A DNA stretch of 48,279 bases from the NCBI GenBank assembly GCA_031272265.1, contig JAISUD010000023.1, positions 1-48,279 on the forward strand, written 5' to 3'. The stretch's first letter is position 1. The number at the start of each line of letters is the position of its first letter. Of this stretch, positions 1,470 to 48,252 are shown one piece after another. The position numbers were made by a program, and so were the translations under genes. The stretch is from Endomicrobium sp. Lineage in GTDB: Bacteria > Elusimicrobiota > Endomicrobiia > Endomicrobiales > Endomicrobiaceae. The notes under the pieces were generated by a model. That model was given only the letters and a program-made list of their open reading frames with translations, was not told where the DNA came from and did not search any database.

Positions 1470-2102
1470 ATGGATGCGGTAGTTTATAATTCAAAAGGGC
1501 AGGAAACGAGTAAGATAAAACTGCCTGTTTTTTTCGGTATGGAAGCTTCCGATGCGCTTTTACACGAAATTGTAACGGCATATCTGAGCAATCAAAGGTC
1601 GGGGACGCATAAAACGAAGACGAGAAGCGAAGTGTCTTTTTCAGGTCAAAAACCATGGAAACAAAAACACTCCGGTGCTGCCCGCGCGGGGCAAAGAAAC
1701 TCCCCTCTGTGGAGGAAAGGCGGTATAATTTTCGGACCACAACCTAGGGATTACTATATAAGAATTCCAAAACAGAAAAAGAAACTTTCTTTAAATATGG
1801 CGTTGTCAATCCAATTTAAGAATGGGAATATAATTGTCGTGGATTCGCTGAAAGTTAGCGAAGCTAAAACGAAAAAAGTAGTTGAACTAATTAGAAATCT
1901 TAAAGTTGAAGATAAGAAAATTATTTTTGCAGTTTCTAAAAACAATGACGCAAATTTTAGAATCGCCGCAAGAAATATAAAGAATGTCGTAGTAAAAGAT
2001 ATCGAGAGTTTAAACACTTATCAGGTTCTGTGTGCCGATAAATTGATTATCACTCCCGAGTCTGTTAATTTAATAAATAGAAGACAATCGTTAATAAGCT
2101 GA
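1470..2102 (+). CDS. rplD: 50S ribosomal protein L4
   Basis: I choose ATG 1470, giving 210 residues beginning MDAVVYNSKGQETSKIKLPV, where L4 homology starts; an in-frame TTG at 1422 would add 16 residues without family support. The long loop with KQKHSGAARAGQRNSPLWRK around residues 70-90 is the L4 extension that lines the peptide exit tunnel. L4 is a primary 23S binder and, in E. coli, represses its own operon by attenuation; I see no such attenuator here. Followed 35 bases later by rplW. Confidence 0.95.
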   Translation: MDAVVYNSKGQETSKIKLPVFFGMEASDALLHEIVTAYLSNQRSGTHKTKTRSEVSFSGQKPWKQKHSGAARAGQRNSPLWRKGGIIFGPQPRDYYIRIPKQKKKLSLNMALSIQFKNGNIIVVDSLKVSEAKTKKVVELIRNLKVEDKKIIFAVSKNNDANFRIAARNIKNVVVKDIESLNTYQVLCADKLIITPESVNLINRRQSLIS

Positions 2103-2137
2103 AAGATGTCTTTTATTGCAGAGAAACAGGAAATAAA

Positions 2138-2428
2138 ATGAATATTGCGAATATCATTAAAAAGCCTATAGTAACAGAAAAAGCTACGGTTCTAAAAGAA
2201 AAAGGTAATAATAAGTATACTTTTATGGTTGACAAAGACGCGAACAAATTTCAGATAAGAGAAGCTGTTGAAACTTTGTTTAAAGTGAAAGTAAAAAGCG
2301 TTCATACTGCAAATTACACGGGAAAAAGAAGGAGAAGGGGTAAATACGTCGGTTATAAAAATGATTGGAAAAAAGCGATAATAAAACTCGCTCAAGGGCA
2401 GGAAATTCAAATGGTGGACGAACTCTGA
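2138..2428 (+). CDS. rplW: 50S ribosomal protein L23
   Basis: The 96-residue protein begins MNIANIIKKPIVTEKA, with the family motif P-I-V-T-E-K, and carries YTFMVDKDANKFQIREAVE and a basic loop (GKRRRRGKYVGYK) typical of L23. L23 lies at the tunnel exit and is the docking site for trigger factor and the signal recognition particle. Length matches the family. An AGAAACAGGAAAT stretch upstream of the ATG gives a weak ribosome-binding site. Confidence 0.96.
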   Translation: MNIANIIKKPIVTEKATVLKEKGNNKYTFMVDKDANKFQIREAVETLFKVKVKSVHTANYTGKRRRRGKYVGYKNDWKKAIIKLAQGQEIQMVDEL

Positions 2429-2532
2429 GTTATATATATGAATTGCGTATTTAAATAAATAGAGAAAGAAGTTTTTAATTTTCAGTTGTTAGTTAATTTT
2501 ACTTGATTGAATTTACATTATAGGGAAAGGTA

Positions 2533-3366
2533 ATGCCACTTAAGACATTTAAACCGTACACTCATTCAAGAAGACAAATGTCAGTTTTAAGTTTTTCGGA
2601 TATTACAAAAATAAGTCCTGAGAAATCGCTTACTAAAATAATAAAAAAAAAAGGTGGGCGCAATAATACGGGCAAAGCAATGGTTCGTTTCAAAGGGGGC
2701 GGCCATAAAAGATTTTATAGGATTATTGATTTTAAAAGAGATAAACTTAATATCCCGGCGGAAGTGATAGCTATAGAGTATGATCCTAACCGTTCAAGCA
2801 GACTGGCTCTTCTAAAATATGAAGACGGCGAGAAAAGGTATATAATTCAACCTGTTGACGTAAACGTTGGAGATTCTATTATGTCGGGGCCGAATGCTGA
2901 GATAAAACCGGGAAATTCTCTACCTCTTGCAAATATACCCTTAGGTGCTTTCATACATAATTTAGAATTTATAGCCAGCAAAGGCGGACAGCTAGTTCGT
3001 TCCGCAGGTGTTGCAGCTCAGCTTCTTGCTAAAGAGGGTGATTACGCCCATGTTAGAATGCCTTCCGGTGAAATAAGACTTATCAGGGTGAACTGTTATG
3101 CGACAATTGGACGAGTAGGGAATTTGGATCATGAAAATATTGTAATAGGTTCTGCGGGAAGAAACCGTCATATGGGTAGAAAACCTCATGTGCGCGGAAC
3201 GGCAATGAACGCTGTTGATCATCCTCATGGAGGTGGACGAGGAAGATCTAAAGGTGATAATCAGCCCAGAAGTCCTTGGAATCAACCTGCTAAGGGGTTT
3301 AAGACGAGGCCTAAGAAAGTCTGGGACTGGGTAATATTAAGTCGTCGCAATAAAGATAAGAAATAG
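2533..3366 (+). CDS. rplB: 50S ribosomal protein L2
   Basis: The 277-residue protein begins [15 protein letters not shown] and contains the near-universal block [18 protein letters not shown], whose His in DHPHGG is placed next to the peptidyl transferase centre in known structures. Length matches bacterial L2 (about 275). L2 is needed for subunit association and for the active 50S. AGGGAAAGG just before the ATG is a good ribosome-binding site. It is followed 16 bases later by rpsS. Confidence 0.98.
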
Positions 3367-10355: not shown

Positions 10356-11679
10356 TATTTTCAAAACGCCGCAACTTCAAAATAAGATTTTTTTTACTCT
10401 GTTTACAATTGTTGTTTGTAGACTAGGAGCTACGATTCCAATCTCGGGTATTAACACGGAAGCGGTAAAAACTTTGTTTGCAGCGCAGAGAAATGGTTTT
10501 TTAGACTTTTTAGATATATTGTCAGGTGGCGCTCTTAATAGAATGTCGATTCTTTCTCTGGGTGTAATGCCTTACATAAACGCATCTATCATAGTTAGTT
10601 TATTGCAGGGCGCCCATGTAATTCCTTATTTAGACAGGCTTGTAAAAGAAGGCGAATACGGCAGAAAAAAACTTGTACAGATAACAAAGCTGGCGACACT
10701 AGGGATTGGTATAATGCATTCTTTTGGTTTAACGGTGGCGCTATCTAAAATGTCTACGCCATCAGGGATGTCTATAATTGTTAATCCGTCGTCTTCGTGG
10801 GTTATTTTGACGGTTTTGACTCTTGTTGCAGGTGCATTTTTGACTATATGGCTTGGGGAGCAAATTACAGAAAGAGGAATAGGAAACGGTGTTTCTATTA
10901 TAATTTTTGCGGGTATTGTAGAAAGACTTCCTCGCGCGGTGCTTGGAGTTGTAAAGCTTGTGCGGGTGGAAGAGCTTTCAATATTGTTTGCCTTCTTGAT
11001 GTTTGCTTTTGTGCTTGGAGTTTTAGTTTTGGTTGTATGGGTTGAAACTGCACAAAGAAGGATTCCTATTAATTATGCGAAAAAGGTCGTTGGCAGGAAA
11101 ATGTACGGTGGCCAGACGTCTTTTCTGCCTATAAAAGTTGATCAGTCAGGGGTTATGGCTGTGATATTCTCAGTATCTGTTTTATCTGCTCCTTTGGCTT
11201 TGGCGCAGTTTACTCCGAATTGGGCGATATGGAATTTTCCTTTAACTAGAAAGGTTGTAGACTGGTTTAATAATAGTTCCGCGGTATATAATTTAATTTA
11301 TGTATCTCTCATTATTTTCTTTTGTTATTTCTATAATTCTATATCTTTTAATCCTAAGGAATTATCGGAAAACATGAAAAAAGCGGGCGGTTTTGTCCCA
11401 GGCATAAGACCTGGCGAGCCTACAAGCGTATATATACAGAAAATTTTAGAAAGGATTACTCTTAGCGGAGCGGTGTTTGTTGCTGCTGTTGCCGTTTTGC
11501 CGGACTATTTAAGAACGGTGACGAGCGCTCCGTTTTTCTTCGGAGGAACGTCGCTGCTTATAGCTGTAGGTGTTTCATTAGATACTATTGGACAAATAGA
11601 ATCGCATATTATTATGCGTCATTATGAAGGATTTGTAAAAGAAAGGCGGGTAAAAGGAAGATGGTTTAACATTAAATAA
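10336..11679 (+). CDS. secY: Protein translocase channel subunit SecY
   Basis: The 447-residue integral membrane protein has about ten hydrophobic segments. It begins [20 protein letters not shown], which aligns with the normal SecY N-terminus, so the 20-base overlap with rplO is likely real. Visible signatures are RLGATIPISGIN at the first membrane segment, GVMPYINASIIVSLLQG, ITERGIGNGVSIIIFAGI, and KAGGFVPGIRPGEPT in the cytosolic loop used by SecA and ribosomes. It forms the SecYE(G) channel for protein export and membrane insertion. Confidence 0.98.
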   Translation: MLKNFINIFKTPQLQNKIFFTLFTIVVCRLGATIPISGINTEAVKTLFAAQRNGFLDFLDILSGGALNRMSILSLGVMPYINASIIVSLLQGAHVIPYLDRLVKEGEYGRKKLVQITKLATLGIGIMHSFGLTVALSKMSTPSGMSIIVNPSSSWVILTVLTLVAGAFLTIWLGEQITERGIGNGVSIIIFAGIVERLPRAVLGVVKLVRVEELSILFAFLMFAFVLGVLVLVVWVETAQRRIPINYAKKVVGRKMYGGQTSFLPIKVDQSGVMAVIFSVSVLSAPLALAQFTPNWAIWNFPLTRKVVDWFNNSSAVYNLIYVSLIIFFCYFYNSISFNPKELSENMKKAGGFVPGIRPGEPTSVYIQKILERITLSGAVFVAAVAVLPDYLRTVTSAPFFFGGTSLLIAVGVSLDTIGQIESHIIMRHYEGFVKERRVKGRWFNIK

Positions 11680-32252: not shown

Positions 32253-35200
32253 GTGGGTAAATCTCAAATAATTTCCGTTCAGGCTTCGGCAGGCTCGGGC
32301 AAAACTTATAGTCTTGCAAATAGGTATCTTTATCTTTTGCTTGGCTCGGGCAAAGACACTGGAATAAAAAATATAATAGCTGTGACTTTTACGAATAAAG
32401 CGGCTCTGGAAATGAAGTCTAGAGTTATAAGTTATCTGAAAAAAGCGGCGTTGTGTTTAGAAACAGGCAGTTTTTTTGACGATTTAAAGCTTACGAAAGA
32501 TGAGATAGTTGAAAAGAGCGCCGTTGTTTTAAATGATATTTTTGAGTCTTACGATAATTTTAATATAAGCACTATAGATAGCTTTAAAAATCGCATCTTA
32601 AAATCCTGCGCTATAAATATTGATGTTTCTCCGAATTTTACTGTCAAGCGTGATTATTCTGACAATCTTTTATTTTCTTTAGAAATTTTTCTGCAGAAAG
32701 CTCAAATCTCAAAAGAACTGAAAGACATTGTATTGCAGTATTTGGCGCAATATTTGATGAGAGATTTGGATTGGCTTCCTAAAAACAATATATATAAGGA
32801 AATTAAGAAAGTATTTGAAAAATCCGGGAACATAGGAAAAGATATTCTATTGGATAAAGGAATATCTTTTGAAAATGAAATTTCTTTGAGAGGTGGAATG
32901 ATTATTGAAAAAATAAAGAAACTTGCTGTTCTTATTTCGGGTTCTCAAGTGAAAAAATACTGTTTGGACGCTGTTGAAAAAGTTTTAAGCAAAGGCAAAA
33001 AAATTTTTTTCTCAATGGATATTCCGAAAAGTTTCTCATATGAAACTATCGGATATAAAAAAGACGCTGAAATTAACACTGAAGCGGACTCGCTTTGGGA
33101 AGAAATAAATAAGGAAATTAAATCTTTATGCGGTTTTTATATGGAAAACTATTACAATGTTTATTCCAATATATACTCAAAAGTTTCGTTTGAGTTTGAT
33201 AATCAGGCGAAAAAAGATGGCGTTGTGTTTTTAAACGAAATAAACAGAAAAACAATTAACTTTTTTGAAAAAAATGACGCGGTTATGCCTGAGGTGTATT
33301 ATAGATTATCTGAAAAATACAAGCATTTTCTGATTGACGAATTCCAAGATACAAGTCTTATACAATGGCTGGGAATTAAAAGATTTTTAGAAGAAAGTCT
33401 TGCCGAAGGAGGGACGTTTTTTTATGTCGGCGACGTAAAGCAAGCGATATACTCTTTCAGAGGCGGAAATCCCGAAATTTTTAACACGATATCTGAGGAG
33501 CTTCCTATTGCGGATATTGATAAAAAATATCTCAGGCAAAATTTCAGAAGTGGAAAAGCGATTGTGGATTTTAACAATGATATTTTTTCAAAGAAAAATA
33601 TTGAAAGATTTTTAAAGGAATTTTACGGGGAGGAATATTTTAGAAGTGATTTTTCAAAATTTCTTGAAGCTTATTCTTTCCCCAGTCAGACTGTGCCAGA
33701 AGAGCGTGACTACGGCTATGTTGAAATATACGCGCTGGATAAAGACGGCGAAGACGCTCAAGAAGAAATAAAGCGGAGATTTACTGAGTGCGTTTTTCAG
33801 TGTTTGGAAAGATTTAATGCTCAAAACATAGCTGTTTTATGCAGAACACATGACGAAATTCTTACTGTAAGTTCATGGCTTTTTGAGAACGGAATTGAGA
33901 TTGAGTCGCCTCAGACATTAAATATAAAAAACAGTGAGTATATAAAACAGATTATATCGCTACTTATGTTTATTGATTCTCCTATAGACGCGTTGTCATT
34001 TTCCTCTTTTATTATCGGAGATGTTTTCAGCGTGGTCTCGGGAATTGAAAGTGGTAAATTTGAGAAATTTATTTTTGACTGCAACAGTCGGGGAGAAAAA
34101 GCGGAAGCTTTTTATAAGACGTTCAGGAAAGAATACGAAGTTTTATGGAATGAGTATTTTGAAGATTTTTTTGCGCGCTCGGGGTTCATGCCCGTTTATG
34201 AATTAATGCTCGCGGTGCTTGCAAAATTTAAAATAATTGAAAATTTTCCTGCCGGTAAAGCGTTTATAATGTGTTTTTTGGAACTTATAAAAGATTTTGA
34301 AACCCAAGATTCTGGGCTTAAAAATTTTTTGGAATATTTTAAAGGATTAAAAGACGACGAAGAATCTTTGTATATAAAAAGCGCTTTTGGAAACGGCATA
34401 AAAATTATGACGGTGCATAAGGCTAAGGGACTTCAGTTTCCGGTAGTAATAATACCATTTCTAAAACTTTCAGTTAAATCTTTGGAAAATCTGTATTTTG
34501 ACGATTCAGGCGAGAAAATAAAGCTGCTAAATATATCGGAAAAGACTGCAACATTTTCCGAGAAAGCCGATGAGATATATAAAAAACGAAAAAAGGATTT
34601 ATTGTTGTCCGAGCTTAATGTGGTTTATGTTTCAATGACTAGGGCAGAATATGAATTTTATGCGATAGTTCCCGTTAAATCCGGGACCTCAAATAATAAG
34701 ATTCCTCTGCTTTTTGAAGGTAAAAATCTTATTTCAGGTAATAAACGGACGTATAATCTAAGCAGCGTTAAGGAAGACACAGTTATTTTAGATGTTTTTA
34801 CGTGCGGTTATAAAGATATTCAAAAATATTTAAAAAATGCAGATAAAACAAAACTTGACATAAAGGGTTTAAAGAAAAAAGGTTCAATTATCCATTACGT
34901 CTTGTCGAAAGTAACTTCGTTGAAAAATAAAAATATAGACGACAGCATTGACTGCGCGCTTAAATTTGCAAAAAGAAAATTTTTTTCTGAAAACATTGAA
35001 TTTGCAAGAGAAAAACTTTATAAATTGTTTGGCTCGGAAGAAGTTTTAAGCTTGTTTATGCACGACGAAAACTGTATTTACAACGAAAAAGAAGTCGTAA
35101 ACGCGGCAGGCAGAATTTTTAGAATTGACAAACTGATAATGAATGGTAACGAAATTACAATAGTGGATTTTAAGAGTTCAAGTTATGATAAAAAAGAAAA

Positions 35201-38422: not shown

Positions 38423-39169
38423 TTATTCGTTAAAGTACATTTTTTTAAGAAAGTTCTTAATGTCGTTAAAACAATCATTTGTAAAATCAAAGATGCCTTT
38501 CTCTGCAGCAATTCCAATAGATGGCCTGTCGTCCTGGTTGACTGATAAATAGGAATGTATTATTGACTTGCTTTCGTTTTTAATTTTGATTTCACATTTT
38601 TCCTTTATGCATTTTATATATCTATTTACGCAGCACGCTATTTTGGGATATTTTAATTCCATATACTCTTTGCATAAATCCTCCAAAGCCCCATTACCTT
38701 TATTGTTTGGCATTATATAAATGCCTAATTCGCCTAATTTAAAGTTATTTTCTATTTCTTTTTTGATATTATCCTTAATAAGTTTAATATCAAGAATTTT
38801 GCATATGTGACCATTATCATTTAGATTTTTAGTAATCTCTTTAATAATATCATTTTTCACTCCTTGAAATTCTTCTCCTTTATCACATTTATATATGCCT
38901 TTAACAATAGTGTCTATCATACTTTTAAGTGCATCTTCTGCGGAATCGTCAGCGTCGCGCAAAAATGCTATCTTTTTGACGTTTGGGAATTTTGGATTTT
39001 TCAATAAAATAGAAAATTTTTCTCCAAATTTTTCACGTCCGTTGACAGATATAATCTGTACATCTTTTTTCTTAGATAAAGATTCAATTAACTTTCCGAA
39101 AAACTTTTTGTCATCTTTTCCTTCAACAAGCAATATTTTCTCTTCTTCAATTTCTATTTCTTCTGCCAT
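38423..39169 (-). CDS. TOPRIM-domain protein, partner of the adjacent ATPase
   Basis: The 248-residue protein starts MAEEIEIEEEKILLVEGKDD. LLVEGKDDKKFF with Glu16 is TOPRIM motif 1, and AFLRDADDSAED with Asp72, Asp74 and Asp75 is the DxD motif, so metal-dependent nuclease chemistry is likely. The rest resembles small TOPRIM proteins of the DUF3226/DUF4435 kind; I cannot tell which without a profile search. It overlaps the ATPase stop by one base (TAATG), indicating a coupled pair like OLD nucleases or PARIS AriA-AriB. Phage defence is inferred, not shown. Confidence 0.75.
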   Translation of the reverse strand: MAEEIEIEEEKILLVEGKDDKKFFGKLIESLSKKKDVQIISVNGREKFGEKFSILLKNPKFPNVKKIAFLRDADDSAEDALKSMIDTIVKGIYKCDKGEEFQGVKNDIIKEITKNLNDNGHICKILDIKLIKDNIKKEIENNFKLGELGIYIMPNNKGNGALEDLCKEYMELKYPKIACCVNRYIKCIKEKCEIKIKNESKSIIHSYLSVNQDDRPSIGIAAEKGIFDFTNDCFNDIKNFLKKMYFNE

Positions 39170-40245
39170 TATCTAATCCTCATATTATTTTCTATAGCGG
39201 TTTCTAGTTCGTTTGCTGTATAAGTAACAGCAGTATGTTTATCGCCTCTTTTATCTAATCTTATTAAAGAAATAGTTTCGTTATCTTTATTATAGATTTT
39301 AGATAAAGCTCTGATGCAATCATATGAATGTGTTGTTGCAAATATCTGAACATTGTATAATTGGCAAGCTTTCAAAACTGCTTTCCATAACGACTCTAAG
39401 GATTCAAAATGTAATCCGCTTTCTATTTCGTCTATTAGTAGAATATCATTTTTAATTTTTCTTATACTAGCTAAAATAGAGATAAGGTTAATAATTCCGT
39501 CGCCCATAATATTTATAGGTACTGATTCAGTTTTACCTTCAATATCTATATAGACTGTATTATCGGGACCCATTTTTATCCCTGTAATGTCGCTGTCAAT
39601 TTCTTTTAATACGGATACTAATTCATTTTCGGACTTGCTGATAATAAATTCGCCGACAGATTTCAGCGCAGACGGCATAGTAGCGCTGTTTAAATATGAT
39701 CCTTTTATTCTACGGGGTCTGAAAGAGATAGGAGTAGGAGTAGGTATGTTGTAATCAATACTAAATGGCTTGTCGTCACTACTGTCAAAATATTCATAAT
39801 GTATCCCTGCTAGCTCATTACTGGTTTTTACAATTATTTTAGGAGCAAATTTACCGTCTCTATTATTAACAAAATTCTGATCTGTAGCATTATTTAAATT
39901 AGTATATTCCGGCATTCTAATATTCGGTCTTATATGTAGTCTCGTTTCTTTATTATCAGACGTTGTTGCTTTAAATTTAATGTTATTGTTGTTAATGTCG
40001 TCAATTCTGAAATCATTGAATAAATATCTAAAATCATTATTTGTGTTAACAAACATTCCTCTTATATTCTGTATTAATGTAGTTAAAGTAGGATTCGTGC
40101 CTCCAATTAACAAAAAGATAGCCTCTAATAATGATGTTTTTCCATAGCCATTTTTACCGACTAATAAGTTTATTTTTTTAAACTCTTCAATTTCTAAATT
40201 CTTAAAGCTCCTAAATTTCTCAATATTTATTGACTTTAAAAACAT
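39169..40245 (-). CDS. AAA ATPase (ABC/OLD-type), partner of the TOPRIM protein
   Basis: The 358-residue protein starts MFLKSINIEKFRSFKNLEIE, typical of RecF/OLD-like ATPases. Walker A is GKNGYGKTS (30-38), a signature-like segment NIMGDGIINLISIL lies at about 245-258, Walker B is DILLIDEIESGLHFE (267-281), and ATTHSYDCIRAL (303-314) is the switch region. It has no transmembrane segment or long coiled coil, so it is the short AAA_15/AAA_21 kind. TAAAGGAGG lies upstream of ATG 40245, a very strong ribosome-binding site. The pair is intact in a region where other defence genes are dead. Confidence 0.85.
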   Translation of the reverse strand: MFLKSINIEKFRSFKNLEIEEFKKINLLVGKNGYGKTSLLEAIFLLIGGTNPTLTTLIQNIRGMFVNTNNDFRYLFNDFRIDDINNNNIKFKATTSDNKETRLHIRPNIRMPEYTNLNNATDQNFVNNRDGKFAPKIIVKTSNELAGIHYEYFDSSDDKPFSIDYNIPTPTPISFRPRRIKGSYLNSATMPSALKSVGEFIISKSENELVSVLKEIDSDITGIKMGPDNTVYIDIEGKTESVPINIMGDGIINLISILASIRKIKNDILLIDEIESGLHFESLESLWKAVLKACQLYNVQIFATTHSYDCIRALSKIYNKDNETISLIRLDKRGDKHTAVTYTANELETAIENNMRIR

Positions 40246-40328
40246 AAAATACCTCCTTTACGTTAATAAATTCTTTTAATATATAATACAATATTTTGAA
40301 TCGATAATCTTAATTATTCAAAATAATT

Positions 40329-40541
40329 TTAATTATAAAATATGAAAATAAGTAGGAAATAATATAGTTTTTTTAAGTAAATAATTTTTGTATCTGTACT
40401 CTTTTTGTTGACAATTTCGATTTCTTCTGCTAAATAATTAAGTTCCACGCCTAATGTTGCCAACATTTCTGCAGGTGCTTCAGCCGCTTCCCAGTTTTCT
40501 GCGATTACTAATTTTTCGATTTTCTGCTGTAGTGCGCGCAT
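40329..40541 (-). CDS. Small unknown protein, 70 residues
   Basis: The frame starts MRALQQKIEKLVIAENWEAA one base after the upstream gene's stop, so it is likely translated by coupling. The first 45 residues are helical and acidic (EEIEIVNKKS). The last 25 residues are Tyr/Leu/Phe rich and look like random read-through into AT-rich DNA, so the true protein may have been shortened. It precedes the ATPase gene by 83 bases. No family recognised. Confidence 0.5.
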   Translation of the reverse strand: MRALQQKIEKLVIAENWEAAEAPAEMLATLGVELNYLAEEIEIVNKKSTDTKIIYLKKLYYFLLIFIFYN

Positions 40542-40542
40542 A

Positions 40543-40857
40543 TTAACTACGTAATTCCCAGAATTGGTTCTTTTTTTCGGTGAGAATTGGAGCGCCCTCT
40601 TCTGCGAGTTTTTTTGTTTTGGTTATCCTATCTATTAGCGTACCCCAACACACTTTATTCCCAAAAGACCTGGCTTCCGGATTTTCTTCGCAAATTTTTT
40701 TGGTTAATTCGAACTCGCTTTTTGTCATTTTTTCTCCTTGATTTGTTTTTTCTTTTTCTTCCGCTTTTTTTACTGCTTTTTCGATCCATAGCCAGATTGA
40801 TAATACTAGCAGTATTATTAGTGCTATGGCTTCGCGCAGTTCGCTTATGTCGCTCAT
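40543..40857 (-). CDS. Small membrane protein, 104 residues, unknown
   Basis: The product starts MSDISELREAIALIILLVLS with one membrane segment at residues about 8-24, then a Lys/Glu-rich helix (KAVKKAEEKEKTNQGEK) and a C-terminal domain with EENPEARSFGNKVCWGTLID. AAAAGGAGGTATAAA before the ATG is a near-perfect ribosome-binding site and a near-consensus promoter lies 46 bases upstream. The anchor-plus-helix form recalls phage or defence accessory membrane proteins. It may lead a four-gene minus-strand operon with the next three genes. Confidence 0.65.
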   Translation of the reverse strand: MSDISELREAIALIILLVLSIWLWIEKAVKKAEEKEKTNQGEKMTKSEFELTKKICEENPEARSFGNKVCWGTLIDRITKTKKLAEEGAPILTEKKNQFWELRS

Positions 40858-40902
40858 TTTATACCTCCTTTTGTGCTGCTTCCGTTGTGTCTGGGCGGTC
40901 GA

Positions 40903-40932
40903 GTTATACTACTTTTTCTTTTTTTTTGTCAA
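40903..40932 (-). promoter_or_regulatory. Near-consensus promoter for the minus-strand small-gene/ATPase/TOPRIM cluster
   Basis: Read on the minus strand, TTGACA (40932-40927) and TATAAC (40908-40903) are 18 bases apart, with transcription start near 40,896. It lies 46 bases before ATG 40857. The -35 hexamer is a perfect match. No second promoter as good is seen before the ATPase gene. Confidence 0.7.
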
Positions 40933-41479
40933 TGGCTATTTTCTTTTTTTTATTATTGTTTAATGCTATAATCAAATATGAGTATAAGACGTTGCTGGTT
41001 TCTTTTATGGTGAACAATATTTACTGCTGGCAAAAATGCTTTTTCTTTAAAAGCAAGATATAAAAATAGGAAAATTTACGATGCGGATAATTGAGAATGT
41101 GCGGAAGCGTTTTGCATTCTAATTGATTTGCACGCGCGACTATTTAAATTTATATTGTCTCTTGCACTCTTGCAATAGGCGGAATTGTTAGACGACTAAA
41201 AGTTGTATGGAATAAATCCTGCTTAAAGATGAAAGTAAAAATAAGATGGAAAACTGTAAAAATCAGCTAGGCGCATTGTATTATTTGGCTAGAAAGTTGC
41301 CTGCGCAAATCTAAATTTAGCAGGCAGGATAGTAAAAAATCGACAAGAGAAGTGACAATTGTCTTAATTAAGGAAGAGATTATAGAAGGTTTTGATACGC
41401 ATATGAAAGAGAGATGAATTAGAGTAGATAGATATGTTTTTGTGGTAATATATTTATTTTATTATGGATATAAAATGAA
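40933..41479 (+). other. AT-rich decayed spacer
   Basis: No intact gene is seen. A frame near 41,223-41,310 (ATG at 41248, MENCKNQLGALYYLARKLPA) ends after 22 codons, and a hairpin TGCCTGC/GCAGGCA lies at about 41,297-41,325 without a T-run. The stretch separates the minus-strand cluster from + strand relics. Confidence 0.35.
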
Positions 41480-41951
41480 GCTTATACAGAAAATGCTATG
41501 CTTGAAAGAATTCTGTTTCCATATTTTAAAAACTTTATATCTGGCTATTATTCCCTCTTGAAGGTCAATTGGTTGGTGAACTTAGAGATTTACTATTAGG
41601 ACAGTCTAAGGCAAGTGCTGCTCATTCAATTATGAACTGTTTTGAGAGTATTGACATATTCTTCAAGATAGACAGATATTTGTTCTAAGTTATGTTAGAG
41701 ATAATTGCGGGCAATCTGAGGTAAAATAAAATTAATCTTCTTTCGGAAAAAGTGAGGTGTATGACCATGAAGGTTAATCAAAGAGACTACAGAAACAGAG
41801 TATCTTTATTAAAAATAATAGTAAATTGCTTTACCCTGAATACGAAGAATGGTACTTTACAAACTTTAGAGTGAGTCATTTAAACCTACAACAACTAGCA
41901 TTATATACTAATGCAATTAATGTAATTAAGTCATTCCAAATTTCTTGTTAA
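41480..41951 (+). pseudogene. Unrecognised gene relic in several frames
   Basis: Pieces read AYTENAMLERILFPYFKNFI, then in another frame LEGQLVGELRDLLLGQSKAS and AAHSIMNCFESIDIFFKIDR, and later KLLYPEYEEWYFTNFRVSHL to a stop at 41949-41951. The runs are coherent helical protein text, each ended by a frame change or stop. The end lies 39 bases before the next gene's ATG, so the two may once have been one operon. I cannot name the family. Confidence 0.4.
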
Positions 41952-41990
41952 TGATATTTAAATGGAAAAATAAAGGAGAAGGTAACTACA

Positions 41991-42893
41991 ATGGAAAATG
42001 CAAAAGTGTATATCAATAATCTACTTCAAAAAGAAATCTGGACGGGACAAGAAACAGGAAGAGCTTATCTTTACAACAGATTACTCTTTTTAAAGGCTCA
42101 GTTGGAAGGAGGGTATACTGGAAGTTTAAACGAACAACTGGAACTGATATTAAGTAAGGTTCAAAAACTTTATGGCAATGACGAAATGGATTTTGAGCAT
42201 TATAAATACTTTTTTTCGTGGTTAAAAGAGGCCATAGAAAGGGTCGAAACACATTTAAAAATTGTATCTGATAATTGTAAAATAATTGAAAGTGTTTTAG
42301 ACAATATTCTAGACTTAGGTGGTATTCCACAACTTAAGAAAAAAGATATTGAATCGATTGTAAAAAAAGCAGTTGCAAAAATAAAACAGGGTATTAAAGA
42401 AGCATATTATTTCTCCTCTTCTATTTTGGAAATTGAGTCTATAATTAATATAAAAGGATTGAGCTTTTTTGATCCTGCGAAAAGGCCAAATGAGTTAATG
42501 GGTAAGGGTACAACACTTGAGAGGAAAATGGAAGAAATAAAGAACAAAATAAGCAGTATGAGTAGGAATAAATCTTTAGAAAAAGAACAAAAACTAGAAA
42601 ATCTACTAAAGGAAGAAATAGACGAATTAGACAAATATTTAAAGAAGTTAAGTCAAAAAAATTTATACAATATCATTAAGAAACCCGAAGATGAAATTAA
42701 AGACTACTATTTTGGAGGCTGTGCTATAGCTTTGTCAATCCAAGATCCTGAAAAGTATAGGGAGTTAAAAAGAGAAGAAGAGATGAAAAAAGGAGAAGGA
42801 CTGAATAGAAAAAGCAAATATTTCCCACTTTATCTCGAAAATATACAGAAAAGGATCGGCAAAAATAAAGATGAAAATAATGACGAAAAGTGA
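41991..42893 (+). CDS. Unknown 300-residue helical protein
   Basis: An intact frame with AAGGAGAAGG before ATG 41991. The protein starts MENAKVYINNLLQKEIWTGQ. It is helical and charged, with a likely coiled coil at residues about 175-225 (TTLERKMEEIKNKISSMSRN, KLENLLKEEIDELDKYLKKL), and a short conserved-looking stretch YYFGGCAIALSIQDPEKYRE near residue 240. There is no signal peptide or membrane segment. It sits between the ATPase-TOPRIM cluster and a dead restriction-modification pair, so a defence or phage origin is plausible, but the function is unknown. Confidence 0.7.
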   Translation: MENAKVYINNLLQKEIWTGQETGRAYLYNRLLFLKAQLEGGYTGSLNEQLELILSKVQKLYGNDEMDFEHYKYFFSWLKEAIERVETHLKIVSDNCKIIESVLDNILDLGGIPQLKKKDIESIVKKAVAKIKQGIKEAYYFSSSILEIESIINIKGLSFFDPAKRPNELMGKGTTLERKMEEIKNKISSMSRNKSLEKEQKLENLLKEEIDELDKYLKKLSQKNLYNIIKKPEDEIKDYYFGGCAIALSIQDPEKYRELKREEEMKKGEGLNRKSKYFPLYLENIQKRIGKNKDENNDEK

Positions 42894-43034
42894 CGAATAA
42901 AAAGGTATATAAAAGAACATGCCATGTGTATATGTAATATAACGGTGATATGCGATTATAGTGCATTCATTTGATAGTGAAGTAAGTATATTAAATTGCA
43001 TTGCAGAGATAGTTTTTAGTTGTAAGATGGACAT

Positions 43035-43737
43035 ATGGACAAAAGATTAAAAAGGTTTGACAATTTTGTGAAAAACAATAAATTTATACGAATATCGTGA
43101 GAAATATTCTCGTATAAAAATTGTTGAAATGGACTTGCCTAAGAGCATTCAAGCGTTAAGAAGTATATATTATTATTGGAAAAACGCAGGTGTGAATATT
43201 CCTGATTTTGAGAGATACTATAATTTATATTATGAAGAACTTAAAGATGAAATAGAAGCGTTTAGAAAAAAACGGGAATGTGTTATAACTACTTTAATAA
43301 GGGATTGAAAGCAAGAATTTACAGGACTTGGGCAGCTATATAATTACACAAATACACGCTGGGTACGTAGCTGAAAGCGTTTTTGGCGAGAATTCCATTG
43401 AGATGAGTGATGAGTTAGATCACAGTGGGAAAGATTTTGTCATTACACATAACAATAAAACAGTTGCCGTTCAAGTTAAAAAAGAAAGCAAACGACCGGA
43501 AAGTCGCATCATTAGAATGGCAACGGTAAAGATGATTCTGTGATAAATATAAGATACTGCGTTCCAAGTGCCGCTGATTTTGATAAACCAAGATATGTCA
43601 AGACGGACGAAATTAAACCCTGTATGTTAGATTTTGTTGAATTTTCTAAGGACGAGATACTGACAAGGTATAAAAACGGATTTGTCGTATTTTTGGATAA
43701 AATATTCATAGATATAAAGAACAAGTTTTTTAAATAA
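43035..43737 (+). pseudogene. Broken TaqI-type restriction endonuclease
   Basis: ATG 43035 starts MDKRLKRFDNFVKNN; after a frame change the text reads KYSRIKIVEMDLP and YYYWKNAGVNIPDFE, matching the N-terminal third of TaqI/TthHB8I-type enzymes as I recall them. Later frames give KARIYRTWAAI, ITQIHAGYVAESVFG, EMSDELDHSGKDF and VQVKKES, which is the catalytic region, and RYCVPSAADFDKPR and NGFVVF near the C-terminus. There are at least four frame changes (near 43,085, 43,290, 43,341 and 43,530), so it cannot make an active enzyme. A TaqI-type enzyme would cut TCGA. Confidence 0.75.
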
Positions 43738-44680
43738 TTTTTGCTTGCTTTTGAATAATCTCATAAAGCTCGCCGTAATTTGATTTTGTCGTTTTTTTCT
43801 TGTATTCGATTATTTTTTCCGCTAACATGCAATAATCGGGATTTATTTCAAAACCTATAAAGTTGCCGCCGTTTTTAAGTGTTATAACGCACTCTGAACC
43901 ACTTCCTGCAAAAGGTATAAGAACAATGAAATCGTTTCTATCCGGCTTTGCCGCTTTAATTAATTTATCTGTAACTTCATAGGATTTTTGAGTTGGATGT
44001 ATAAGAGTATTATGTTCTTTATGGCAGCGTCGTTTTTTTTGCATCAACTATCTTTCCGCAGGTTTTACAATAAATGATTCTTTCTTTTAATGAAGCGCCG
44101 CCGGCTAATGTTGAGACTTTTATAACGTCTCTCGGCAATGCTCCGCTTTCGTGAGCGTTGTAAATAGTTTTTTTTACCGTATCTACTGAATCTGCACAAA
44201 GTGCCGGTCCGCATTCTCCCCGCTGAATTTTTTAGGAATGTTTTTGTATACGCTTCTCTTACGTTGTTTCTGTTAAAAATCGGCTTCTTGCCTTTCCAGC
44301 AGCTTATTATAGATTCGTGGCTCCTCTGCCAAAAATTCAGCGAAGGAATGTTTTTATTTGTGTAATGCCATATAAGCCATCTTTGTTTATTAATGTCAAT
44401 TAGACAGGAAATTCTTGCAAGTATCTCACTAAAGCCATAAATATATATGGTCCCGCTTGGTTTAACGACCTGTAAGCATTCATTAAACCATTGTTTTGTC
44501 CATGATAGATAATCTCGCAGAGACAATTTATCTTTATTATTGCCGAAATCTTTGCCTATATTGTACGGCGGATCGGTAATTATAATATCTATAGAGTCAT
44601 TATTTATTTTTTATTCCTGTTATACAGCTTTCAAGAATTATCCTATTATTTAAATCAATGGAATTTTTTGATCCTTTCAT
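43730..44680 (-). pseudogene. Broken DNA methyltransferase (DPPY type, beta-class order)
   Basis: On the minus strand ATG 44680 gives MKGSKNSIDLNNRIILESCI, then after a frame change NNDSIDIIITDPPYNIGKDF carries the catalytic DPPY motif. The reading continues through VKPSGTIYIYGFSE to about 44,230, then a second change leads to VSTLAGGASLKERI and a CKTCGK pair, and a third to HPTQKS and PFAGSGSE, the AdoMet-binding motif. It therefore needs at least three frame changes. DPPY points to N6-adenine methylation. It converges with the broken endonuclease, and the two are a plausible former pair. Confidence 0.75.
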
Positions 44681-47384: not shown

Positions 47385-47463
47385 AAGCAAAAGAAAAGAA
47401 ACTGCCTTCCCCTCTCAATCCCCTCTTATTCTATCCTTTTTTCAAAGGGTTGTCAAATTTTTG

Positions 47464-47501
47464 ATCATATTTAAAGACTCTAAAGACTCTTTAAATATGA
47501 T
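47464..47501 (+). repeat. Perfect 13-base inverted repeat
   Basis: ATCATATTTAAAG (47464-47476) and CTTTAAATATGAT (47489-47501) are exact reverse complements around a 12-base loop. The stem and loop together include a direct repeat of AAAGACTCT. It is not followed by a T-run, so it is more likely an operator or a cruciform than a terminator. Confidence 0.7.
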
Positions 47502-47934
47502 TTAAAATTATGACAACAGTAGTGTGTTGGTATTGTTGATAACTTTAATTCTTTATTACCCAAATTTTAATATTTCTTTTATATAAAGTTTCTACATTTT
47601 GCTCACTTATAAGTTTATAATTTTTAATACAAAAAACTGCGAACGGCTCGCATTTAAGGAAAGGCAACTACAACTACAATAAAGATGGTAAAATGAATCA
47701 GAAAGATTCAGTTTACAATTTACAATTTGTAGGTATAAATAATTATTAATTACTTTACATATAATTTAATTAAGCTGCCTCTCAGGAAGCCATTTTTAAG
47801 TCTTTTTTTTGATATTAATTTTAGTCCCAAAAAATTTTTTGTCTTAAAAAGCGTCTTTTTGAAGCTTAGAACTAAGTTCAAGCTGCCGTCCTGCCGATTA
47901 ATTAAGTTTAAGGAATTAAATTCTTAAAATGCCG
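47502..47934 (+). other. AT-rich non-coding stretch
   Basis: No frame looks coding. The first copy of the 24-base direct repeat lies at 47705-47728. A small stem CTTAG-AA-CTAAG (near 47,864) is present. Confidence 0.35.
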
Positions 47935-48252
47935 TTAAGCCGTTTACTTTATCCGCCGCCGCACTAAAGCCTGAGCGAAGCGAACAAATAAAGCTAGCGA
48001 ACGCTTTAGCGCAAGCGGCGAGAATAGCGGCTTAAGGCTTTACAACTTAATATGCAAAGTGTGAAATTTTAGCGTATTATATTGACTTGATAATATATGT
48101 ACAACTCACGACAGATAGACGATAAAAAGGAGTTTTTAAAAAATGTTTGATTTAGGATTAGGTGTAAGGTTCCTAGTATGAAGGTTAGTCAAGGGCAAAG
48201 TTTTAATTAGGAATTGTTGCTGATTCAGTTTACAATTTACAATTTACAATTT
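47705..48252 (+). repeat. Pair of direct repeats rich in TTTACAAT units
   Basis: The same 24 bases (starting GATTCAGTTTACAATTTAC) occur at 47705-47728 and 48222-48245. The second copy continues with a third TTTACAAT unit to 48252. The pair brackets the GC-rich palindrome. Tandem eight-base units are prone to expansion. Confidence 0.6.
47935..48034 (+). repeat. GC-rich 100-base imperfect palindrome
   Basis: Left arm TTAAGCCG...CGCCGC...CTAAAGC (47935-47970) pairs with right arm GCTTTAGC...GCGGCG...CGGCTTAA (48003-48034), with mismatches and small bulges and a smaller nested stem in the loop. The GC content is clearly higher than in the flanks, which suggests an acquired mobile palindrome (REP/MITE-like) or a structured RNA. 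Confidence 0.6.

What the first reader, a model, noticed from the sequence alone, without database searches (positions are those of the whole stretch)
38423..40932. Four-gene minus-strand unit: two small proteins, an AAA ATPase and a TOPRIM protein
A consensus promoter at 40,903-40,932 leads a membrane protein gene with a strong ribosome-binding site, a coupled 70-codon gene, then an ATPase with a strong site and a TOPRIM gene overlapping its stop by one base. ATPase-TOPRIM pairs are the core of OLD and PARIS-type phage defences. The small leading pair with a membrane anchor is not part of the well-known layouts and may be a sensor, effector or antitoxin-like part. It is intact where nearby defence genes are dead.
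Basis: partly seen in the sequence, partly recalled or inferred. Interest (0 to 1): 0.72.

Follow-up and report, generated by a model that had tools for sequence, protein, structure and literature searches.

The report
ATPase–TOPRIM defence pair beside foreign genes
An insect-gut symbiont keeps an intact two-gene phage-defence-like pair, an ATPase and a nuclease, that its sister species carry only as wreckage; the two small genes in front of it are later foreign debris rather than part of the system.

Summary
The four minus-strand reading frames, the promoter-like site and the 1-base ATPase/TOPRIM overlap are all there. They are two separate things, not one four-gene system. (1) 38423-40245 is an intact two-gene module: an AbiLi/PDC-M38A-type ATPase and a DUF3226 TOPRIM protein (PDC-M38B). 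It sits downstream of addB. Three sister Endomicrobium genomes carry decayed copies at the same site, and a fourth keeps a scrap of the TOPRIM end. Pairs without the small genes occur in three other Endomicrobium genomes, one genome of the same family and three Bacillota. The same two-gene layout, again with a 1-base overlap, is carried by tiny ColE-type plasmids of Klebsiella and E. coli. (2) The 104- and 70-codon genes occur in no other genome searched. The 104-aa N-terminus has a paralogue in this genome, in a cluster with a lipoprotein shaped like a phage spanin. A sharp GC break runs through the 70-codon frame, so it is probably a truncated remnant at an insertion junction. Most likely the ATPase holds the TOPRIM nuclease inactive until infection, as in PARIS (inferred). 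By the published rules it is neither PARIS (no DUF4435) nor classical AbiL (no AbiLii match), but an unstudied relative.

The parts
38423..39169 (-). TOPRIM-domain protein, DUF3226 (PDC-M38B type), predicted effector; VEGKDD (E16) and RDADD (D72, D74) motifs intact
   Evidence: PF11536 E=8.2e-32; PF20469 OLD-like_TOPRIM 8.1e-5; PDC-M38B 4.1e-20; motif positions
39169..40245 (-). ABC-type AAA_15/AAA_21 ATPase, AbiLi/PDC-M38A type; Walker A GKNGYGKTS (residue 30), MGDG (247), Walker B LLIDEIE (269), ATTHS (303) intact
   Evidence: PF13175 2.4e-23, PF13304 5.6e-19; PADLOC AbiLi 3.7e-68, PDC-M38A 6e-55; motif positions
40252..40257 (-). AGGAGG ribosome-binding site of the ATPase gene
40292..40406 (.). 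junction zone: resident A+T-rich upstream sequence (13% GC) meets 38%-GC DNA; best change point 40390, inside the 70-aa ORF
   Evidence: resident side is alignable with sister fossils
40329..40541 (-). 70-aa ORF, orphan, probably the truncated start of a foreign gene; starts directly after the preceding stop; not part of the defence module
   Evidence: no family; no relative; GC break
40543..40857 (-). 104-aa small protein with one N-terminal hydrophobic segment (most hydrophobic 17 residues start at residue 10); lineage-specific, N-terminus paralogous to an ORF in contig C20; not part of the defence module
40864..40869 (-). AGGAGG ribosome-binding site of the 104-aa ORF
40903..40932 (-). sigma-70-like promoter TTGACA-N18-TATAAC (11/12)

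Best explanation
The locus is a self-contained two-gene defence module of the split-OLD kind (ATPase plus separate TOPRIM nuclease), with unrelated foreign small genes joined to its 5' side. The ATPase most likely forms an oligomer that senses a phage product and holds the TOPRIM protein inactive. On infection it releases or activates the TOPRIM protein, which cuts nucleic acid (tRNA as in AriB, or DNA as in OLD/GajA) and stops growth. Shown here: the gene pair, intact catalytic motifs, synteny with decayed copies in sister species, the pair's repeated occurrence without the small genes, and the foreign composition and lineage restriction of the small genes. Inferred: defence function, oligomer, sensing, nuclease target. 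The small genes are probably phage-like debris; the 104-aa protein shares its N-terminus with a paralogue found beside a unimolecular-spanin-like lipoprotein. Their promoter may now also drive the pair, but that is untested.
For: Family assignments. Fossils of the pair at the same site and strand downstream of addB in G014, G062 and G027 (both genes along their length in G027), and a TOPRIM-tail scrap in G001. DNA matches to the fossils stop at 40249-40255, just upstream of the ATPase start. Pairs without small genes in G020, G060, G338, G641, G700, G657, and in G025 with a shortened TOPRIM. Pair carried on 4.2-kb Klebsiella and 4.7-kb E. coli plasmids with the same 1-base overlap. Small genes absent from the 35 to 41 other genus genomes searched, viral contigs and phages. 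GC break. Paralogue in C20. A neutral simulation gives 7.6 new in-frame stops at 10% divergence, with zero stops in 0 of 400 runs, so an intact pair beside ruined sister copies suggests it was kept by selection. Sensor/effector model: AriA hexamer sequesters AriB, a two-metal tRNase (PMC12409363); AAA ATPases neutralise TOPRIM_OLD toxins in tested pairs (PMC10440598).
Against: No experiment on any DUF3226 TOPRIM was found (no paper in the held library names DUF3226). The AlphaFold model of the TOPRIM protein failed (pLDDT 38), so its fold is known only from profiles. F. nucleatum AbiLii is toxic but was not neutralised by its AbiLi (PMC3985639), and PARIS is reported not to behave as a toxin-antitoxin pair (PMC9122126), so the 'held inactive' step need not be simple neutralisation. 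The small genes keep an open frame, a perfect SD and a good promoter, which leaves room for function. The genome is a 60%-complete MAG, so a chimeric join near 40390 cannot be excluded.
Confidence: 0.66

Rival explanations
1. A true four-gene defence system: the membrane-anchored 104-aa protein and the 70-aa protein act as sensor, anchor or antitoxin for the ATPase-TOPRIM pair.
For: Same strand, closely coupled genes, strong promoter and RBS upstream, all four frames open.
Against: 0 of 7 pairs elsewhere, 0 of the plasmid pairs and 0 of the sister fossils have them; no relatives of either small protein outside this genome; GC break inside the 70-aa ORF.
Confidence: 0.06
2. The pair is a toxin-antitoxin unit in the strict sense: the TOPRIM protein is a stand-alone toxin and the ATPase its antitoxin, kept partly by addiction rather than phage selection.
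For: AAA-neutralised TOPRIM_OLD toxins were validated in E. coli for other families (PMC10440598); F. nucleatum AbiLii is toxic (PMC3985639); the pair is carried on tiny plasmids.
Against: In PARIS neither deletion is toxic (PMC9122126); the pair was lost repeatedly in sister species, so addiction is not strong.
Confidence: 0.2
3. The pair is a housekeeping or repair ATPase-nuclease that helps AddAB next door.
For: Located beside the UvrD-type helicase and PDDEXK nuclease genes of an AddAB pair in this lineage.
Against: Present in only 4 of 42 genus genomes while AddB is in 39 of 42; opposite strand; found at unrelated sites elsewhere and on plasmids; best profile matches are defence models.
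Confidence: 0.05
4. The pair is itself decaying and non-functional, merely not yet broken.
For: Sister copies are wrecked at the same site; the genus has reduced genomes.
Against: Full motifs and coding signal (z = 6.0 and 6.9); with 10% neutral divergence 0 of 400 simulations keep both frames open.
Confidence: 0.1

Closest known systems
PADLOC candidate system PDC-M38 (PDC-M38A ATPase + PDC-M38B DUF3226/TOPRIM)
   Same: Both subunits match its models (6e-55 and 4.1e-20); two overlapping genes in this order; the Klebsiella plasmid pair matches too.
   Different: Only a computational candidate: no paper in the held library names it. The ATPase scores higher still with an AbiLi model.
AbiL (AbiLi + AbiLii) of Lactococcus lactis
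   Same: ATPase matches AbiLi at 3.7e-68; bicistronic ATPase plus TOPRIM-like partner.
   Different: TOPRIM subunit has no AbiLii match at E up to 1; AbiLii is RloB-type (PMC10440598).
PARIS (AriA + AriB)
   Same: Two-gene split ATPase + TOPRIM; AriA 1.1e-24 and AriB 2.4e-5 secondary matches; solved AriA structures among profile hits.
   Different: Effector is DUF3226, not DUF4435, which the published PARIS rule requires (PMC9122126).
OLD / Gabija GajA
   Same: ABC ATPase plus TOPRIM catalytic pairing; the first 55 profile positions of the ATPase match a solved OLD protein (6p74).
   Different: Two separate proteins rather than one fused chain; no GajB-type partner in the unit (the UvrD-type gene at 32253 belongs to the AddAB-like pair).

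Membership tests
PDC-M38 (PADLOC candidate) | ATPase matching PDC-M38A | tested here: met
   6e-55, full length
PDC-M38 (PADLOC candidate) | Adjacent TOPRIM matching PDC-M38B | tested here: met
   4.1e-20, residues 10-245, 1-base overlap with the ATPase
PDC-M38 (PADLOC candidate) | Anti-phage activity | not testable with these tools
   no experiment possible
AbiL | AbiLi ATPase | tested here: met
   PDLC02336 3.7e-68
AbiL | AbiLii (RloB-type) partner | tested here: not met
   no AbiLii match at E up to 1; matches only in G025 (0.0047) and G338 (8.6e-8)
PARIS | AAA_15 >= 32 bits or AAA_21 >= 27 bits | tested here: met
   83.8 and 69.8 bits
PARIS | DUF4435 >= 27 bits in the partner | tested here: not met
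   no DUF4435 match at E up to 1; DUF3226 111 bits instead; rule from PMC9122126
OLD-family TOPRIM nuclease | Conserved acidic motif (E and DxD) | tested here: met
   VEGKDD at 15 and RDADD at 71; E16, D72 and D74 invariant in the four Endomicrobium proteins
Four-gene system with small membrane genes | Recurrent co-occurrence of the small genes with the pair | tested here: not met
   absent at all other intact, plasmid-borne and fossil loci examined
Phage spanin/holin cluster (for the small genes) | Significant match to a lysis family | tested here: inconclusive
   only E ~0.1 PHROG lysis matches; topology of the C20 lipoprotein fits

The most novel reading that the evidence does not exclude
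The foreign membrane gene pair was captured in front of the resident ATPase-TOPRIM module and now supplies its promoter and a membrane-anchored, lysis-protein-like trigger, making a lineage-specific four-gene defence operon.
Probability: 0.05. Interest if true: 0.6.

Novelty: new member of a known kind. Interest (0 to 1): 0.34.

Why it matters
It shows a split-OLD defence pair kept intact in an insect-gut symbiont while the same locus rots in its closest relatives. It also separates the core module from chance neighbours: a related pair with DUF3226 rides on 4-kb plasmids (139 Klebsiella plasmid records match the ATPase), so an unstudied relative of PARIS and AbiL is directly testable in laboratory E. 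coli.

Tried and rejected
Small genes as part of the system: rejected by co-occurrence and composition. Small genes in phages or viral contigs: no matches; their placing as lysis debris therefore rests on the C20 paralogue and topology only. Phage-borne copies of the pair: none found in viral contigs or phage records. AlphaFold model of the TOPRIM protein from two sequences: pLDDT 38, not used for a fold search. TOPRIM profile against solved structures: no significant match. The genome-contig scan with the ATPase alignment returned mostly N-terminal Walker A matches, so co-occurrence was taken from whole-genome searches instead. PARIS and AbiL membership: rejected on the effector. Helper of AddAB: rejected on distribution. 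Two papers on Endomicrobium defence decay (PMC5174739, PMC4760077) were not held.

Full report
What is there. The window is one contig of a 0.7-Mb, 60%-complete genome. Its genus is Endomicrobium in the broad sense: its congener G060 is the record titled Candidatus Endomicrobiellum dinenymphae, so a termite-gut flagellate symbiont is likely. The four minus-strand frames, both AGGAGG sites, the TTGACA-N18-TATAAC site and the 1-base ATPase/TOPRIM overlap are confirmed. Coding signal is strong for the ATPase and TOPRIM genes and weak for the two small ORFs.

The pair. The ATPase carries AAA_15/AAA_21 and matches PADLOC AbiLi (3.7e-68) and PDC-M38A (6e-55). The TOPRIM protein is DUF3226 (8.2e-32) with an OLD-like_TOPRIM match, PDC-M38B (4.1e-20) and a weak AriB match. 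Walker A, Walker B, the switch histidine, the TOPRIM glutamate and DxD are intact. Four of 42 genus genomes, including this one, hold the ATPase; one more genome in the family and one distant genome in the phylum hold a related one.

Its history. Downstream of addB, on the same strand, sister genomes hold ruins of the same pair: ATPase starts and TOPRIM ends in G014 and G062, both genes along their length in G027, and a scrap of the TOPRIM end in G001. DNA similarity runs to 40249-40255, just past the ATPase start, and alignable A+T-rich upstream sequence to about 40292. The pair is therefore an old resident of this site, lost repeatedly, and intact here. At 10% neutral divergence no simulated copy kept both frames open, so selection has probably kept it.

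The small genes. None of the pairs elsewhere (G020, G060, G025, G338, G641, G700, G657) or the sister fossils has them upstream; a permissive search of all these loci found nothing significant. On the 4.17-kb Klebsiella plasmid and the 4.7-kb E. coli plasmid the same two genes, with the same 1-base overlap, are present with plasmid genes and, in E. coli, one small gene downstream. Neither small protein has a relative in other genus genomes, viral contigs or phages, and window 40260-43045 has no DNA match in 41 other genus genomes. The 104-aa N-terminus matches a 50-aa ORF on contig C20 (score 106; best of 5,000 shuffles 62, block shuffles 81). That ORF lies beside a lipoprotein with a lipobox and a C-terminal hydrophobic segment, all inside a 3D-domain gene split by about 1.2 kb. 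GC steps from 0.13 to 0.38 at about 40390, inside the 70-aa frame: the frame probably starts in foreign DNA and runs out in resident sequence. These are best read as lineage-specific foreign debris.

Mechanism. By analogy with PARIS, where an AriA hexamer senses a trigger and releases the AriB TOPRIM tRNase (PMC12409363), and with AAA-neutralised TOPRIM_OLD pairs (PMC10440598), the ATPase is the likely sensor and inhibitor and the TOPRIM protein the effector. Substrate and trigger are unknown. It works like PARIS/AbiL but fails their effector criteria (rule in PMC9122126), and it fits the unstudied PDC-M38 candidate.

Limits. MAG incompleteness and a possible chimeric join, no experiments, no usable structure model, and the 'spanin-like' label rests on topology only. 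The genus sample includes incomplete genomes, so absences are not absolute.

Noticed in passing
L010 (G000:C20) 10437-11669: A 3D-domain (RlpA-like) gene is split by about 1.2 kb carrying a run of small minus-strand ORFs, including a lipoprotein with lipobox and C-terminal hydrophobic segment (10736-11134) shaped like a unimolecular spanin; the lipoprotein is found in no other genus genome.
   Followed up: partly
window 43045-44608: Broken restriction-modification-like remnant: DNA methyltransferase in two frames (43730-44526); the stretch is 72% identical to stretches in G013 and G005, consistent with RM units moving within the genus.
   Followed up: partly
window 47413-48246: Repeated DNA: 81-95% identical copies on contigs C16, C17 and C28 and a short exact match on C15, at the contig end; probably a mobile or repeat family that broke the assembly.
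   Followed up: no
window 41991-42893: Intact 300-aa plus-strand ORF with good coding signal (z = 4.9) and no family match, next to the dead RM remnant.
   Followed up: no
L102 (K. pneumoniae 4167-bp plasmid), L116 (E. coli 4693-bp plasmid): Tiny ColE-type plasmids whose main cargo is an ATPase + DUF3226 pair; 139 Klebsiella plasmid records match the ATPase. A compact, cultivable model of this defence family.
   Followed up: partly
L013 (G025:C10) 1706-3257: A further Endomicrobium ATPase-TOPRIM pair has a shortened 140-aa TOPRIM gene, probably decaying.
   Followed up: no
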